IMG/VR virus record: IMGVR_UViG_3300044695_005573
Coordinates: 1-54,913 of that record
DNA from: a virus
Reading direction: 5' to 3' (one strand)
Length of the DNA stretch: 54,913 nucleotides
A program made the translations under genes and the position numbers. A model generated the notes under the pieces. That model did no database searches and was not told where the DNA came from. It saw only the letters and a program-made list of their open reading frames with translations. Positions 12,042 to 19,078 of the stretch are shown here, one piece after another. The stretch's first letter is position 1. Every line of letters starts with the position of its first letter.

Positions 12042-15000
12042 CTAATCTTCGTTCATGCCCAGGCGCTGACGAATGGCTTGGATAGATCCTTCGTCAGGAA
12101 GGTTCTGCGGAGCATTTGGTAGTTGATTAAGGCGCACGTTGACGGGTCTCCCCTGCCCAGGCGGCAGCACTTTTCCGGCATACAAACGAATAGCTTTATA
12201 TAGCGGATCGCCGCCACCTTCGGAAGCGCCTGCAAGATGCCCTTCGGTGCTACCTTTGTACCCTGGGGGCAAAGGGTTAAAATCGTAGTTTTCTTGAAAC
12301 ACCAACTGCTTTGTTTTTGGATCAACGGTGTAACCAATACGGCCAAACGTGCGGTTTAGGGCTACTGGGGTGTGACTACCAAAAACACTAAGGCCACTAG
12401 GGTCACTAGGGTTTTTTAATGCGTCAATTAGGTAATCTTCATATCCCAAATTTGGGCCAATGCTAAATATATTGGCTACGTCGGCTACGCCGGCAGACCT
12501 TAGTCCCACCTCGCGCTCGTAAGTCTGTGAGTCGCCCGAAGCCAAATCAATAAAATCTTGTGTAATTACCCCTTTTTTATATTGTTTAATAGCGTCTAAA
12601 TCTTTTTTATATTGTGCAAAAAATTCTGGATACAGGATCTTGCCTTTGTTTTTCGCAGCAACAGCTTTTTGATGGCTAGCTAATGATTTAACTAAATATT
12701 TTTCGTACGTAGTTAAATCCGGCTCAATAGATTTGTATTTGCTGCGAACGACAGACATAAGCGCTTGGCGCTCTGGTTCCTTCATGGAGGCTTCGGTAAT
12801 CGGGTCTTTACGAGCATCGACAACAGACTCAAGGAAGATGCGCTTGTGTAGTGGCAAATCTTCGCGATTGACGTTTCTGCCATATAGCCCAAGTCCTGCG
12901 CCAACTAGTTTGTCGGCAAAGGTCAGATCGGGATTAAACCCTACCCCTTCCTCGCGAAGATCAGGCTGCTTAATCGGCGCGCCGCTCGGGGGACTCGTCG
13001 GGATTGAACGCGACAAATCGGAGCGCTCTAGTAACGAACGATACAAATCCGCGCTCGTCTCTCCCGTGCTCGGGCTACCCTTCGCACGCCTCTTGGGTTC
13101 TGTTTTCTTGTTCTTGTCCCCCGTACGCTCTTTTAACGCAGGTACCACAATCTGCACCGGACGACTAACTCCGGCCTGCTTTGCCTTCCGAATAAAAAAG
13201 TTGTCTTTTTCATTAACGTCACCCGTGAAGTCATACGTGTCTTTGACCACATACGATCCGTCAGGCATCTCCTTAAACGAGAACGTACCTAGGGTGTTAC
13301 GCAAGTTTGCCGTGGAAAAAAGCGAGCGGTCTGTGTCAGGCCCCGGCAAACCACCAAGGCGCTCATAGCGGTCTTTGTACGCGTCATGATGCGCGTATGT
13401 CACGGTGTTGGGCAGGGCCTTCCCTGTTTTTCTATCAGAAACCGGACGGGTCTTTGCCAACTCAATCAATCGGCGAAGTTTTGCCAATTCCGCTCCAGAC
13501 AAACTAGCCTCTGTAATTGGCTCCGTCCGCTTGGAAGATTCGCCCGACATCGACTCTAGGTACGTCCGAATGTGTAGCGGCACTATCCGCTCATCCGTTT
13601 CGTCAACCTCACCGCCCTCGTTAAACCGACGCGTCATCAGATCCCCGAGCCGCGATAACTGCTTCTTGGTCAGCCGGCCCTCGCCAAACGTATCACGCAT
13701 CAAATCCTTCGCCGACATCGCATCCCGCGAACGCACAGACTCGGACATCTTGAGAAGCTCCGCGAGCGTGTCAGGCGCGCGCCGTGGCTCTTGGGCCGTG
13801 GTCAACGACTCAAGCTCCATGGCCATGCCCTTCGCAGTGCCCCTGTCCGTCTCTTGACTGATCGGTTGCCGCGTCGCACGACGCACAGTCTGCGAGACCG
13901 GCGTCGCGTCAAACTCCACCTGCGTCTCACCAGGCGACTCCGACAAACTCTCCAACATGCCACGCGCAGAGTCGATGTTCTTCATCGACTCCGCATACGA
14001 GTCCTTGCTGTCACCCTTCAAGAGCGCAAGCAACTCAGCATCCGAAGACGGACCACCCTTCGCACGCCCCGTCGGACGCACCGCCCCAGGCGACAGGATG
14101 ATGTTGCCAAAACGGTCCGTGTAATACCCCGCGTTCTGCGCCCCACCCAACATCGTCGGCCCAAGGTTCGGGTTCGCAGCAAGCGCCTGCAACGGCAGAT
14201 TGCTCGTCTGCAAGCTCGGCAGCCGTGTGCTCGAGGGCAACGTGCCAGGGCTCAAGGCCCCAGGAGTCGGCGTGAAATACGGGGTCGATGTGCCTTGGCC
14301 CGGGGCAACGGGCAAGGGGTTCGCAATATACCCCGGCGTCGGAATGTTCGCGGTCGGGATGTACCCGCCACCAGGAATGCCCGTGGCCGGAGGCGACACA
14401 GGGATGTTGACCGGAGGCTGCGCAGGGGTGGGCGCAGGGGCGGGCCTGCCACCGCCCGTCTGCGGAGGAGGCGTTCTGCCACCACCAGGAGTCCCGCGTC
14501 CGGTCCGCGGCTCACGGCCGGCAGGGGGCTTTCCAATCCGACCAAGCAACCGGCCGACATCGCTGTTCGGGTCGATCGCGTTCCAGTTAAAGTTGAACCC
14601 GCCGCGCGCCGGCGTGCCGGTGTCCGGCTTCTCGTCGCGATCGTCGATGCCGTTCAGGTTCCTGTCGATGAAGTCGGCCGTACGGACAGGACCCATCTCG
14701 TCCTTCGGCGGCCGGGTGGTCGGAGGATTGACCGGCAACCTGCTGTCGATCAGCCCGGGGGGCGCCGTTCCGGTACCACCTCCGGTACCACCGCCCGGGG
14801 GCGGCTCCTCCCTCGGAGGAGGCCGGTTCCTCTGCTCTTCCTCCGCCCTGCGGCGAGCTTCCTCCGCTGCACGGCGGGCGGCCTCTTCAGCCGCCATCCG
14901 ACGAGCGTTCTCTTCCGCTAGGCGACGGGCTTCCTCAGCCGCTCGAGCAGCCGCCGCATCCTGCATCGCACGACGAGCAGCTTCCTCTTCAGCCGCTCGA

Positions 15001-16154
15001 CGAGCGGCCTCTTCAGCGGCTCTACGGGCGGCTTCATCGGCGACGCGCTTGGCGTCTTCCTCGGCCTTACGACGAGCTTCTTCTTCCGCGGCTTTGCGGG
15101 CGGCTTCTGCTTCTGCTGCACGACGGGCTTCCTCCTCTTGCGCTGCTTGGCGAAGTTGTTCATCCCGGAAACGGGCTATGTCTCCTTCCTCCGGTCGTGG
15201 GCCGGGGCCACCGGGCATGTAACTACCCCCCAAACCAATCCCTGAGAGATTGATGCCAGTCGTGAGCCCGCCAAACCCCGCGGCATTGATCCTGGCTAAC
15301 TCCGCCAACTGTTCCGGCGTCAGGGTCGTCGTGGGGGAGGTGCCCGTGAACTGAGCGAGATTGTCGGCTGCGCTGCCAGGGGCGGTAATCGGTTCGTCGT
15401 TTTCCGTACGAGGCACCCGATCACGCTCTTCTTGCTCGCGAATGAATGCCTCAACACTATCCTGTTTTTGCGGACGATTGCCAACGCCCCCGTCAAACGG
15501 GGGCCGTAAAAGATCCTCCTGCTCGCGCGTCTCTCGCCTCAGACGAGCACGCTCGGCCGCATCCGCACTCATGGCCATGCCAGAGGTTGTCGGCGGCGAG
15601 GCGGCGGGCTCGAAAACCGGAGCGGCTTCTGTCCGCGGTCTCGGGATGTAGTCCCGCTCTTCCTCCACAGGAGGCAGGAAGGACGGCCGGCCATACACCG
15701 GACTCGGCGGAGCGCCAGGGGACTCGTAAACCCTCGGCGGGGTGTACGCAGGGGGAGCAAACTGCTGAAGATCCGCCGCCGCAGAGCCAGGCTGCGCGGC
15801 CACCGGGGGCTCCGACTCAGGCTCTACCTGAGTGCGCATCGTGTCAGGGGCCACCGAAAACCCGGGGAACGGGGGAGCCACAACCTCCGATCGAGGCGCA
15901 GGCATCATCGGGTTATCCCCAAACAAGCCTAACGGCTCCTCCCCCTCACCAAGCGCCTCCATCCCAAACACAGGCTGATACTCGCGCAGCTTCGTCTTCG
16001 GGTTCTTGGTCCCCGCGCCACCGAGCTTCTTCAACAGCTCACGGGCCTTGGGGCTGAGGTAAGCCAACTCCGTGTCGCCCCCACGGCCTGCGGAAGCAAC
16101 CTTCTTGATAAACGACGCTGTGTCTTTCTTCGCGGACTTCTTGGCTTTGGCCAT
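12042..16154 (-). CDS. Giant Pro-rich / coiled-coil structural protein with duplicated C-terminal module
   Basis: 1370 aa. The N-terminus is Lys-rich, with the motif LGGAGTKNPKTKLREY (residues about 43-59), also seen in the 781-aa virion protein. There follow a Pro/Glu-rich linker, an Ala/Glu/Arg coiled coil (about 325-445, many EEAARRAAEE units), a Pro/Gly-rich stretch (about 445-690), and a C-terminal region with two related modules. Module 1 (about 855-1010) has PLHIRTYLESM, PITEAS and KDTYDFTGD. Module 2 (about 1085-1350) has PLHKRIFLESV, PITEAS and ENYDFNP. The sequence at 12.4-12.7 kb is AT-richer than its surroundings. Probably virion-associated; function unknown. Confidence 0.8.
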   Translation of the reverse strand: MAKAKKSAKKDTASFIKKVASAGRGGDTELAYLSPKARELLKKLGGAGTKNPKTKLREYQPVFGMEALGEGEEPLGLFGDNPMMPAPRSEVVAPPFPGFSVAPDTMRTQVEPESEPPVAAQPGSAAADLQQFAPPAYTPPRVYESPGAPPSPVYGRPSFLPPVEEERDYIPRPRTEAAPVFEPAASPPTTSGMAMSADAAERARLRRETREQEDLLRPPFDGGVGNRPQKQDSVEAFIREQEERDRVPRTENDEPITAPGSAADNLAQFTGTSPTTTLTPEQLAELARINAAGFGGLTTGINLSGIGLGGSYMPGGPGPRPEEGDIARFRDEQLRQAAQEEEARRAAEAEAARKAAEEEARRKAEEDAKRVADEAARRAAEEAARRAAEEEAARRAMQDAAAARAAEEARRLAEENARRMAAEEAARRAAEEARRRAEEEQRNRPPPREEPPPGGGTGGGTGTAPPGLIDSRLPVNPPTTRPPKDEMGPVRTADFIDRNLNGIDDRDEKPDTGTPARGGFNFNWNAIDPNSDVGRLLGRIGKPPAGREPRTGRGTPGGGRTPPPQTGGGRPAPAPTPAQPPVNIPVSPPATGIPGGGYIPTANIPTPGYIANPLPVAPGQGTSTPYFTPTPGALSPGTLPSSTRLPSLQTSNLPLQALAANPNLGPTMLGGAQNAGYYTDRFGNIILSPGAVRPTGRAKGGPSSDAELLALLKGDSKDSYAESMKNIDSARGMLESLSESPGETQVEFDATPVSQTVRRATRQPISQETDRGTAKGMAMELESLTTAQEPRRAPDTLAELLKMSESVRSRDAMSAKDLMRDTFGEGRLTKKQLSRLGDLMTRRFNEGGEVDETDERIVPLHIRTYLESMSGESSKRTEPITEASLSGAELAKLRRLIELAKTRPVSDRKTGKALPNTVTYAHHDAYKDRYERLGGLPGPDTDRSLFSTANLRNTLGTFSFKEMPDGSYVVKDTYDFTGDVNEKDNFFIRKAKQAGVSRPVQIVVPALKERTGDKNKKTEPKRRAKGSPSTGETSADLYRSLLERSDLSRSIPTSPPSGAPIKQPDLREEGVGFNPDLTFADKLVGAGLGLYGRNVNREDLPLHKRIFLESVVDARKDPITEASMKEPERQALMSVVRSKYKSIEPDLTTYEKYLVKSLASHQKAVAAKNKGKILYPEFFAQYKKDLDAIKQYKKGVITQDFIDLASGDSQTYEREVGLRSAGVADVANIFSIGPNLGYEDYLIDALKNPSDPSGLSVFGSHTPVALNRTFGRIGYTVDPKTKQLVFQENYDFNPLPPGYKGSTEGHLAGASEGGGDPLYKAIRLYAGKVLPPGQGRPVNVRLNQLPNAPQNLPDEGSIQAIRQRLGMNED

Positions 16155-16195: not shown

Positions 16196-17659
16196 TCAGT
16201 AGTATTCAGGAGCAAGCGTGCGTCCAGACGGCTCCGGTTTCTCGTCCGTGTTCAGCGTCACGAAGTTGCCCTGACGGAACCGCATGATCGCCTGCGTCGT
16301 CGAGTCGACCATGTCGTCGTTATCGCCGTTCGGGAACGCAGCGCACTCCTCGACCAGCTCTTCCGCCCAATCAGTGTCCGGGGCCCAGACCATCCCCGAC
16401 TCAAACACAGGCGCCACCGCATGCGCCCGGCTGATCTTGTCCGTGCCCGAACGACGACCGCCAGGGGTGTACATGGTGACAGGGATGCCCAGCCGCCGCA
16501 GCTCCTGCTGGAGCGTGACACCCGTGGCCTTCGCCTCGATCAGCACATTATCAGGATTCCAGTGCTTGTACTCGTCCTTTGCAATGCGCTTGAGCTCCGG
16601 GAAGTCCCACCGGCCTCGTACAACATCCAACAGGATGATGTTCGGCCCCGAGTCCTGGTCCGGGTAAAACACTCCCCAGGTCGTGATCACCGAGAAGTCC
16701 GCCGTCTCCTTCTTGCTGTAGGCCGTGTCATAGCTCTGGATGATGTAGTTCACAAGCGGGGGATTCGGATCCGGCCAGACCCGCCACCACTCACGCTTGA
16801 GGATTGCACCCTCGTCGTTTGTCGGCTGCTGCTGGTACATCGCGTTCCACTTCTGGACCGATAGCGATGCCTTGACCGATTCCAACTCCTCGAGCTTCCA
16901 GAACTCCGGCCACAACGGCTTGCCACTCGGCAGGATCGCCGGGAACTCAATGACCTCCCACTTGTCCGCGCCACGGCTGGCCTGCGCCTTGAGCAGCCGG
17001 GCCGTCAGGTCCTTCGTTCCCCAGCGCGTCATCACGAGCACGATCGCACCGCCCGGCTGCAAACGGGTACGCGGACCGCCCTGGTACCAGTCCCAGGCGT
17101 TATCTAGCGCAAGCTCCGACAGCGCGTCCTGTTCCGAATGCGGGTCGTCGATGATCAAGATGTCCGCACCGCGGCCGGTCACGGCACCGCCCACGCCGAC
17201 TGCAAAGTAACTACCGCCCGCGTTCGTGTCCCACCGGCCGGCAGCCTTGCTGTCCTGCTTCAGGACCACCTCGGGGAACAGCTCCTTGTAGCGGTCACTG
17301 TCCATCAGGTCACGCACCTTGCGGCCGAACTTAACGGCAAGCTCCGCCGTGTGCGTCGCCTCAAGGGCCTGAAGGTTGGGGTTACGGCCCATCAGGTACG
17401 CGGGCAGCAGATACGACGCAAACTCCGACTTGGTGTGACGGGGCGGCATGTTCACGATCAGCCGCTTCAGCGTCCCGCTGGCAATGCGGTCAAACGCACT
17501 CGCCATGCGCCGGTGATGCTCGCCCAGGATTGCCGAGGGCCACACATAGCGCACGAAGTCGATGAAGTTCTTGCGCGCCTTGTCCTGCGTGTCGAGCAGC
17601 ATCAGCCGGTATTCCAACCGCAGACGCTCCTCCTCGATCTCCTTCGGAACGGCGCTCAT
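16196..17659 (-). CDS. terL: Terminase large subunit (TerL)
   Basis: 487 aa from ATG at 17659. An in-frame GTG at 17698 would add 13 residues; neither has a strong ribosome-binding site. Visible motifs: Walker A-type MPPRHTKSEF (71-80), Walker B LIIDDPH (168-174), C-terminal nuclease acidic residues in SYDTAYSKK (Asp311) and VLIEAKATG (Glu375), and GDNDDMVDS near the end. It packages DNA into the prohead by ATP hydrolysis and cuts concatemers. The small subunit is encoded 5 kb away at 22596-23309. Start placement is the main doubt. Confidence 0.95.
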   Translation of the reverse strand: MSAVPKEIEEERLRLEYRLMLLDTQDKARKNFIDFVRYVWPSAILGEHHRRMASAFDRIASGTLKRLIVNMPPRHTKSEFASYLLPAYLMGRNPNLQALEATHTAELAVKFGRKVRDLMDSDRYKELFPEVVLKQDSKAAGRWDTNAGGSYFAVGVGGAVTGRGADILIIDDPHSEQDALSELALDNAWDWYQGGPRTRLQPGGAIVLVMTRWGTKDLTARLLKAQASRGADKWEVIEFPAILPSGKPLWPEFWKLEELESVKASLSVQKWNAMYQQQPTNDEGAILKREWWRVWPDPNPPLVNYIIQSYDTAYSKKETADFSVITTWGVFYPDQDSGPNIILLDVVRGRWDFPELKRIAKDEYKHWNPDNVLIEAKATGVTLQQELRRLGIPVTMYTPGGRRSGTDKISRAHAVAPVFESGMVWAPDTDWAEELVEECAAFPNGDNDDMVDSTTQAIMRFRQGNFVTLNTDEKPEPSGRTLAPEYY

Positions 17660-17678
17660 GGGGTCGAATTGCTTTTCA

Positions 17679-17716
17679 TATGCGCAAAATTTTTGCACAA
17701 GTTGACAAGTTGATCA
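17679..17716 (-). promoter_or_regulatory. Palindromes and direct repeat at the TerL start
   Basis: The 5' part of terL overlaps a near-palindrome TGCGCAAAATTTTTGCACA (17680-17698). Next to it is a directly repeated CAAGTTGA followed by TTGATCAA (17698-17715). Such a cluster can be an operator or a protein-binding site controlling late transcription. No clear -10/-35 pair is seen here. Confidence 0.4.
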
Positions 17717-17869
17717 ACCGGGGTGGTTTTTTTCTACCCGGGTACCCCGTTCTCTTTAGCCGCACATTGACTGTCTGAAATCAGGCATACGCCCGCGAAG
17801 CCAACAAAGCGGCCTGTTTTTTGGGCCCCGGGGCGCGGAATTCCCCTAGGCCGTGGCGCCGTGCAGCTC

Positions 17870-17903
17870 GCTCAAAGATTGTTCAAAGAATTGCTCAAAG
17901 ATT
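17870..17903 (+). repeat. Three tandem 11-12 bp direct repeats
   Basis: GCTCAAAGATT, GTTCAAAGAAT and TGCTCAAAGATT follow each other without gaps. They directly border the heptanucleotide array. Iteron-like sites of this kind can bind an initiator, repressor or the small terminase; no function is shown by the sequence itself. Confidence 0.7.
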
Positions 17904-18217
17904 ACGGCCCACGGCCCACGGCCCACGACCAGCGGGCGGCGGACCACGGACCACGGCCCACGACCAGCGGACGGCGGCCCACGACCAGCGGGCGGCGGAC
18001 GGCGGGCGGCGGACGGCGGGCGGCGGGCGGCGGACGGCGGACGGCGGGCGGCGGGCGGCGGGCGGCGGGCGGCGGACGGCGGGCGGCGGGCGGCGGGCGG
18101 CGGGCGGCGGGCGGCGGGCGGCGGGCGGCGGACCACGGACCAGCGGGCGGCGGACCACGGACCAGCGGGCGGCGGGCGGGCGACCACGGCCCACGACCCA
18201 CGACCCACGGCCATCGA
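17904..18217 (+). repeat. Heptanucleotide (7-bp period) repeat array, about 310 bp
   Basis: The stretch is built from 7-bp units, mainly GCGGGCG and GCGGACG in the middle and ACGGCCC, ACGGACC or ACGACCC at the edges. It lies in the 760-bp gap between the terL start and the clamp gene. The period of 7 makes several frames open, producing fake Pro/Ala/Arg/Gly proteins; I read no gene here. The G-rich plus strand could form quadruplexes. The remainder of the gap (18218-18370) shows nothing else I recognise. Confidence 0.85.
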
Positions 18218-18372: not shown

Positions 18373-18398
18373 AAAAAAAGGGCCGCACATGGCGGCCC
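18373..18398 (-). terminator. Rho-independent terminator after the clamp gene
   Basis: In the minus direction GGGCCGC, a 5-nt loop and GCGGCCC are followed by seven T. It begins about 24 nt past the clamp stop codon and would end the early transcription unit before the repeat array. Confidence 0.9.
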
Positions 18399-18421
18399 CT
18401 CAGTTAGCGCACGGGCGGGGA

Positions 18422-19078
18422 CTAGGCGGCTTCAGCGGCTTCAGCGGCTTCAGCGGCTTCAGCGGGTTCGGTGACTTCAGCGACTGCGATCGCGGACGGT
18501 GTGACCAGCCATGAGGGGTTATCCAACGGTTGCGGGTCGCCGCGCATGGGCATGATTACGCCCACGGCGTCGCCCGTCAGTACAACACGCGCAGCGGCGT
18601 CGCCGTTATGCCGGATGCTGGGCGAGTAGGCTCCCCCTAGCAGCTTGTGAACCTTGCCGAACGCGCCGATATAGTCCGCGTTGAATTGCGACACCTCGCC
18701 GGACACGGTGAGCGGTACAACCCTGCGCCAGTCGGGATACTTATCGTCCATCAGCGGGGAGGATGACACGGTGCTACCGTTGTCAATCGTCGCCGTGCGC
18801 GTGGTCGGGTCAATCGTTACGGTGATAGGACGCTTCAATACAGCCTTGACGCCTTCCAACGCCTCGCGCCGGATGATGTACTGACCAGGTACGAGCGCGG
18901 GCGCGTCATCGGTCGCGGTGAGTGCCACGGCTAGCAGCTTATGGCCGTCCGTTGCAACGGCTACAGCATCTGATGCGCGAACATCAATGCACACGGAATT
19001 CAAATAGTGGCGGATGTCGTTCTTGCCCGCGATAACGAGCAACGCTTTAATGGTGTCGGCGGGGGTATGAAATTGCAT
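18422..19078 (-). CDS. Short beta sliding-clamp-like protein
   Basis: 218 aa. Residues about 1-60 (ALLVIAGKNDIRHYLNSVCI, then VAVATDGHKLLAV) resemble a DnaN clamp domain with its ATDGHKL signature. A further clamp-like domain follows (DKYPDWRRVVP, about 111-121). Bacterial beta clamps are about 365 aa with three domains; this has about two, like T4 gp45 (228 aa). The C-terminus is a run of Glu-Ala-Ala units from four 9-bp DNA repeats (about 18424-18460). It likely encircles DNA and tethers the phage polymerase. It has its own promoter and terminator. Confidence 0.8.
   Translation of the reverse strand: MQFHTPADTIKALLVIAGKNDIRHYLNSVCIDVRASDAVAVATDGHKLLAVALTATDDAPALVPGQYIIRREALEGVKAVLKRPITVTIDPTTRTATIDNGSTVSSSPLMDDKYPDWRRVVPLTVSGEVSQFNADYIGAFGKVHKLLGGAYSPSIRHNGDAAARVVLTGDAVGVIMPMRGDPQPLDNPSWLVTPSAIAVAEVTEPAEAAEAAEAAEAA

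What the first reader, a model, noticed from the sequence alone, without database searches (positions are those of the whole stretch)
17904..18217. Heptanucleotide repeat array between terL and the clamp gene
About 44 units of 7 bp, mainly GCGGGCG/GCGGACG, with a G-rich plus strand and no likely gene, lie between the late and early blocks. A long tandem array of this kind is unusual in a phage genome. It may be a packaging-site, a replication-fork barrier, a quadruplex or an expandable element. It also causes false ORFs in both strands.
Basis: partly seen in the sequence, partly recalled or inferred. Interest (0 to 1): 0.65.

Follow-up and report, generated by a model that had tools for sequence, protein, structure and literature searches.

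The report
Family-wide heptad array upstream of terL
A run of about 44 seven-letter DNA repeats just before a phage's packaging-motor gene is the tidiest example of a seven-base-periodic stretch that most related freshwater and marine phages carry in the same place, probably a protein docking site (perhaps for starting DNA packaging) whose letters drift fast while the seven-base spacing is kept.

Summary
The array is real: 314 bp, 44 in-phase heptads, lag-7 identity 0.80 against 0.41 (sd 0.03) in shuffles. It is not a private oddity. It belongs to the long intergenic region (roughly 600-1200 bp) upstream of terL. In 88 deduplicated relatives that were not found through the motif (TerL identity down to about 57%), the best autocorrelation lag is a multiple of 7 in 29/43 and 38/45 loci, against about 13% by chance. 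The consensus is 5'-GYGRNCC-3', unspaced, biased to the terL-sense strand. A motif trained on one clade finds tandem heptads in the other, and training on the second clade alone gives the same consensus. Words and length turn over fast: phages with 99.9% identical terL have badly aligning arrays. The region is tethered to terL, not to the clamp gene. Conserved quadruplexes, RNA structure, a gene, or an assembly artefact as the source of the family feature are not supported. Most likely it is a cis-acting protein-binding array; packaging initiation (a terminase-bound pac-like region) is the leading but unproven function. Many relatives carry perfect host-type parS palindromes between array and terL. 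The window's exact array was not seen in any other contig.

The parts
17904..18217 (-). heptad array, 44 in-phase 7-bp units; terL-sense consensus GYSGNCC (GCCGCCC, GCCGTCC, GTGGGCC, GTGGTCC)
   Evidence: family consensus GYGRNCC
17988..18179 (-). homogeneous, recently expanded core (about 27 copies, GCCGCCC/GCCGTCC on the sense strand)
   Evidence: TRF; genome-wide top period-7 signal at 17994
17870..17903 (-). three imperfect copies of an ATCTTTGA-containing 11-bp direct repeat at the terL-proximal edge; homology with close relatives starts about here
   Evidence: TRF; sequences
17772..17829 (-). conserved element GGGGCCCAAAAAAC..GGCC..GGGC..GCC.GATTTCA.ACA between array and terL; candidate recognition or cleavage site (inferred)
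   Evidence: alignment of 43 clade-1 loci
17699..17771 (-). terL-proximal upstream segment; in many relatives this interval holds a parS palindrome at about -64 from terL; absent in the window
16196..17698 (-). terL, large terminase subunit (first ORF start used; true start codon uncertain)
   Evidence: phrog_38 E 2.9e-117
18377..18401 (-). intrinsic-terminator-like hairpin after the clamp gene (such sites are about as frequent in shuffles, so pattern evidence only)
18422..19078 (-). DNA polymerase III beta-clamp-like gene; incidental neighbour
   Evidence: PF02767
22596..23387 (-). terS, small terminase subunit; candidate heptad-binding protein (inferred)
   Evidence: phrog_51 E 1.1e-5; conserved in 12/12 long relatives

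Best explanation
Shown: the array is the window's version of a terL-tethered intergenic region that carries, across a phage family, unspaced tandem 7-bp repeats (consensus 5'-GYGRNCC-3' on the terL-sense strand) about 200-700 bp upstream of terL, followed by a conserved element and the terL start; its words and length change very fast by block duplication and deletion. Inferred: a protein docks cooperatively side by side on the heptads (7-bp steps, three heptads = two helical turns), so the spacing is kept while individual words drift. Inferred further, with less certainty: the protein is the phage terminase, probably through its small subunit TerS, and the region with the adjacent conserved element is the packaging-initiation (pac-like) region of the concatemer. 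The homogeneous core in this window is a recent slippage or unequal-crossover expansion of such heptads.
For: Tandem-heptad pattern search of 2.9 million viral contigs gave 40 stretches; 27 hold a TerL relative and in 20 the heptads lie 170-530 bp upstream of terL on its strand. Best lag is a multiple of 7 in 29/43 and 38/45 unbiased loci, against 24 (a coding, conserved lag) in terL itself. Motif trained on clade 1: held-out clade 2 shows 32 pairs at offset 7 against 0-2 at other short offsets, 3 on the antisense strand, 1 in terL; clade 2 alone yields the same consensus GYGRNCC. Genome-wide, the strongest period-7 signal is upstream of terL in 7 of 9 long genomes and second in one more. The region stays long where the upstream gene is reliable although the upstream gene changes. 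TerS is conserved in 12/12 long relatives, a few kb upstream of terL on the same strand. Position next to the terminase gene fits where pac or cos sites usually lie (general knowledge).
Against: No genome ends or packaging data exist here; full-length contigs start at unrelated places relative to terL, which argues against a unique cos end but not against headful or redundant-end packaging. No binding protein was identified; TerS has not been shown to bind. Some relatives (for example L022, L025-L028, about 93% TerL identity) have few canonical GYGGNC heptads, and the marine pelagiphages HTVC023P and HTVC027P have a related TerL but no such array. Sequences are related by descent, so counts are not independent events.
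Confidence: 0.38

Rival explanations
1. Non-functional, slippage-driven spacer: the only sizeable non-coding gap between a terminator and the terL promoter accumulates tandem duplications, and 7-bp units happen to be favoured and inherited.
For: Region changes fast by block indels of many sizes (1 to over 100 bp); other units also expand (9, 10, 12-15, 20-24 bp); TRF best period is a multiple of 7 in only 25 of 63 arrays. GC-rich heptad words of this kind also occur scattered in many bacterial genomes.
Against: The same degenerate consensus and strand recur in two clades whose other words have turned over; the gap has stayed long in compact genomes; the period is locked to this place genome-wide.
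Confidence: 0.27
2. Replication or partition region: iteron-like heptads for an initiator or host protein, combined with host ParB sites and, in some members, DnaA boxes.
For: Perfect parS core TTYCACGTGRAA in the terL-upstream 700 bp of 88/167 loci, 118-fold enriched, median -64; DnaA box TTATCCACA 33 hits in 11 loci, 40-fold enriched.
Against: The window itself has no parS-like site there and DnaA boxes are in few members; GC skew does not switch sign across the region in the window or in relatives. No RHH, ParB or ParA gene was recognised among the window proteins scanned.
Confidence: 0.2
3. Upstream activating or insulating array for late transcription from the terL promoter.
For: Lies between a terminator-like hairpin and the first late gene, upstream of a conserved promoter-proximal segment with a TATAAT-like box in clade 2.
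Against: No promoter-like site by consensus in the window region; 300-700 bp of repeats is long for an operator.
Confidence: 0.1
4. G-quadruplex or structured-RNA element.
For: Two canonical G4 motifs in the window array on the plus strand; antisense G4 motifs somewhat above expectation in clade 2.
Against: No sense-strand G4 in any relative; antisense G4 in only 15/43 and 7/45 loci; RNA fold no better than shuffles (z +1.87); no Rfam match.
Confidence: 0.03

Closest known systems
parS heptad arrays of plasmid pSM19035 (omega, an RHH ParB)
   Same: contiguous, unspaced 7-bp non-palindromic repeats (7-10 copies of WATCACW) near promoters, bound cooperatively one dimer per heptad; four or more contiguous heptads needed (PMC9499535)
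   Different: different heptad (GYGRNCC), more units, fast-changing, in a tailed phage next to terL; no RHH, ParA or ParB gene recognised among the proteins scanned
T7 SRL/SRR arrays beside the terminal repeats
   Same: imperfect repeats of a 7-bp word (CCTAAAG) in a non-coding stretch near the terminase gene and the genome end
   Different: read directly from NC_001604, the T7 words recur about every 11-14 bp and are not contiguous; T7 array lies downstream of terL; no terminal repeat is demonstrated here
Phage P1 pac site (several hexamers TGATCR; from memory)
   Same: short repeated words recognised at packaging initiation
   Different: hexamers inside the pacase gene, Dam-methylated; not intergenic heptads
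Heptanucleotide STRR arrays of cyanobacteria and other bacteria (from memory)
   Same: tandem 7-bp units in intergenic DNA, variable in number
   Different: dispersed in host chromosomes; here one fixed, strand-oriented place in a phage family

Membership tests
pac or packaging-initiation region | terminase binds and cleaves there / virion ends map there | not testable with these tools
   no reads or virion DNA; contig ends are not informative
pac or packaging-initiation region | lies near the terminase genes and is kept across the family | tested here: met
RHH-type heptad centromere (omega/parS of pSM19035) | contiguous 7-bp repeats | tested here: met
RHH-type heptad centromere (omega/parS of pSM19035) | WATCACW heptad | tested here: not met
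   consensus is GYGRNCC
RHH-type heptad centromere (omega/parS of pSM19035) | cognate ParA and RHH ParB genes nearby | tested here: inconclusive
   none recognised by Pfam/PHROGs among the early-region proteins scanned; not all ORFs were scanned
T7 SRL/SRR array | 7-bp words flanking a terminal repeat | tested here: inconclusive
   words present but contiguous, unlike T7; the window's ends share no repeat and its true ends are unknown
Iteron replication origin | GC-skew switch at the site | tested here: not met
Iteron replication origin | initiator-binding repeats with DnaA boxes | tested here: inconclusive
   DnaA boxes in 11/167 loci only
G-quadruplex element | conserved four-tract G motif | tested here: not met

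The most novel reading that the evidence does not exclude
A so far undescribed kind of phage cis-element in which the 7-bp step and strand are under selection while the words drift, read by an unknown phage-coded protein lattice, and which in most of the family works together with a host ParB site (parS) at the terL promoter, so that packaging or late expression is coupled to the host chromosome-partition machinery.
Probability: 0.15. Interest if true: 0.8.

Novelty: new variant of a known kind. Interest (0 to 1): 0.52.

Why it matters
If the heptads are a protein-binding lattice, this family gives a natural series of hundreds of variants of one cis-element with fixed spacing and drifting words, good for finding the partner protein and its recognition code. 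If they mark packaging initiation, they would help place the packaging region in abundant aquatic phages related to pelagiphages. The parS sites beside terL raise a directly testable question about phages using host ParB. Repeat-rich terL-upstream regions may also help explain why some assemblies of such phages end just before terL.

Tried and rejected
Quadruplex and RNA structure: no conserved support. Link to the clamp gene: clamp relatives are followed by genes. Identical array elsewhere: a 30-bp stretch of the window array has no exact match in IMG/VR. T7 SRL/SRR as the same thing: T7 words are spaced, not contiguous. GC skew for an origin: no switch. First motif training on clade 2 fell into the AT-rich terL-proximal part; it was repeated on -750..-280 and then gave the GC heptad. 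Papers: no description of a heptamer array at a phage terminase or of phage use of host parS was found, but the library misses most subscription journals. Two failed scripts were repaired (and 67/68; 77/78).

Full report
Observation. On the terL-sense (minus) strand it reads as 44 in-phase heptads, with a homogeneous core of about 27 units (17988-18179) and mixed heptads at both ends. Lag-7 identity is 0.80, against a shuffle maximum of 0.52 in 2000 trials. In the window it is by far the strongest period-7 site: excess 0.49, next 0.13.

Neighbours. terL (16196-17698) and the gene on the other side (18422-19078) are both on the minus strand. The latter is a beta-clamp homologue (the best PHROG hit is labelled RusA-like, but the Pfam clamp domain passes its cut-off). 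The array is therefore upstream of terL. No tRNA, Rfam RNA or promoter-like site was found; one terminator-like hairpin follows the clamp gene.

Relatives. TerL relatives were fetched from IMG/VR in two rounds: a close clade (L008-L087, mostly 79-100% identity to the window TerL) and a second clade reached with the L219 TerL (L252-L331; members of that clade are about 57-62% identical to the window TerL). Nearly all have a long, repeat-rich stretch upstream of terL. Direct-repeat density is 0.17-0.27 at -600 to -200, and 0.004-0.007 inside terL. The metagenome-assembled phage DSL-LC04 has it too. The marine pelagiphages HTVC023P and HTVC027P and 023Pt_psg01 do not.

The heptad is family-wide. 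A four-unit heptad pattern scanned over all IMG/VR contigs hit only 40 stretches. Of these, 27 have a TerL relative, and 20 have the heptads 170-530 bp upstream of terL on its strand; two more lie in the region on the other strand. Those 40 loci were left out of the tests that follow. In 43 and 45 deduplicated loci the best lag is a multiple of 7 in 29 and 38 (5 of 37 lags tested, about 13% by chance); inside terL it is 24. A 7-bp tandem motif trained on clade 1 is C-G-Y-G-R-N-C; on held-out clade 2 it gives 32 pairs at offset 7, 0-2 at the other short offsets, 3 at offset 7 on the antisense strand and 1 in terL. Training on clade 2 alone gives G-Y-G-R/N-N-C-C, the same consensus in another rotation. 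A caveat is shared descent: these are not independent events. The looser pattern used was chosen by eye after reading loci of both clades, so only searches are a held-out test, and the choice of period 7 itself came from the window and clade 1.

Fast turnover. Window and L013 have terL 99.9% identical and the terL-proximal 190 bp identical, but the array region aligns at 84.6% with 234 gap positions and the upstream gene is unrelated. Within the tight group, differences are block indels of many sizes. Other units expand too, for example GGGATGCTC in L013 and CTCGAGCTGGCGATC in L036. So slippage or unequal crossing-over is active, and heptads are the recurrent ground pattern rather than the only unit.

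Tethering. The upstream gene differs between relatives, and clamp relatives (L334-L347) are followed by ordinary genes. The array goes with terL. In long relatives the strongest period-7 signal of the whole genome is at this place in 7 of 9 (window included) and second in one more, whose top site lies upstream of terS.

What lies between array and terL. Clade 1 has GGGGCCCAAAAAAC..GGGC..GCCCGATTTCACACA; clade 2 has TAGGG.CCCC and GGGCCATGTTTYTCACAAATA, then a TATAAT-like box. In 88 of 167 loci a perfect parS core lies here, median -64 from terL, 118-fold enriched over the rest. The window itself lacks it.

Mechanism. Unspaced 7-bp repeats bound side by side are established for the RHH protein omega of pSM19035, where at least four contiguous heptads are needed (PMC9499535). 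By analogy I infer a protein lattice here. The place, tied to terL and next to a conserved element, makes terminase the first suspect, with TerS (conserved in 12/12 long relatives) as binder. This last step is inference; nothing here shows binding or cleavage. Packaging sites with repeated short words are known in P1 (memory), and T7 has spaced CCTAAAG words near its ends.

Rivals. A neutral, slippage-prone spacer explains the turnover but not the shared consensus, strand and place. A replication or partition region is suggested by parS and DnaA boxes in some members, but GC skew does not switch there. A G4 or RNA element is not supported.

Limits. No reads, no isolate with mapped ends in the array-bearing clades, host unknown. 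The window's own array length could be affected by assembly of a short tandem repeat; no second contig holds the same 30-bp stretch. Intergenic lengths are reliable only where the upstream ORF is long. Enrichment figures compare with coding-rich sequence.

Noticed in passing
L016, L025, L048, L062, L252, L277, L288 and others, about -64 from terL: Perfect bacterial chromosomal parS palindromes (TGTTTCACGTGAAACA / TGTTCCACGTGGAACA), sometimes two in tandem, beside the terL promoter in 88/167 loci, 118-fold enriched; no paper on phage use of host parS found.
   Followed up: partly
L297 and L331, about -260 from terL: Clusters of perfect DnaA boxes (TTATCCACA) in the terL-upstream region; 33 hits in 11 loci over the family.
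   Followed up: partly
L252, L255 upstream of terL: Repeated palindrome TTGTGATCACAA, 13 hits in 5 loci and none elsewhere in the loci.
   Followed up: no
clade-1 terL-upstream regions, especially the roughly 80%-identity group: E. coli-type Chi octamer GCTGGTGG at 0.68/kb on the terL-sense strand, none on the other, against 0.03/kb in downstream genes; CCTGGTGG at 1.91/kb. Oriented so that RecBCD entering from a cut on the terL side would meet it correctly (knowledge plus inference).
   Followed up: partly
G010 (L363:17800-17960): Heptad-like words also upstream of terS in one relative, with the strongest period-7 signal of that genome.
   Followed up: partly
window 18426-18482: 9-bp tandem repeat GCGGCTTCA, 6.3 copies, at the 3' end of the clamp gene, coding an alanine-rich C-terminal tail.
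   Followed up: no
clade-1 terL-upstream regions: T exceeds A on the terL-sense strand in all 43 loci (skew +0.26), not so in clade 2; 4- and 6-bp palindromes exceed expectation in clade 1 (3037 against 2240; 997 against 669).
   Followed up: no
window 12042-16154 (-): A 1370-aa ORF between terL and portal with no PHROGs match; the same place in DSL-LC04 holds a gene annotated PcfJ-like.
   Followed up: no
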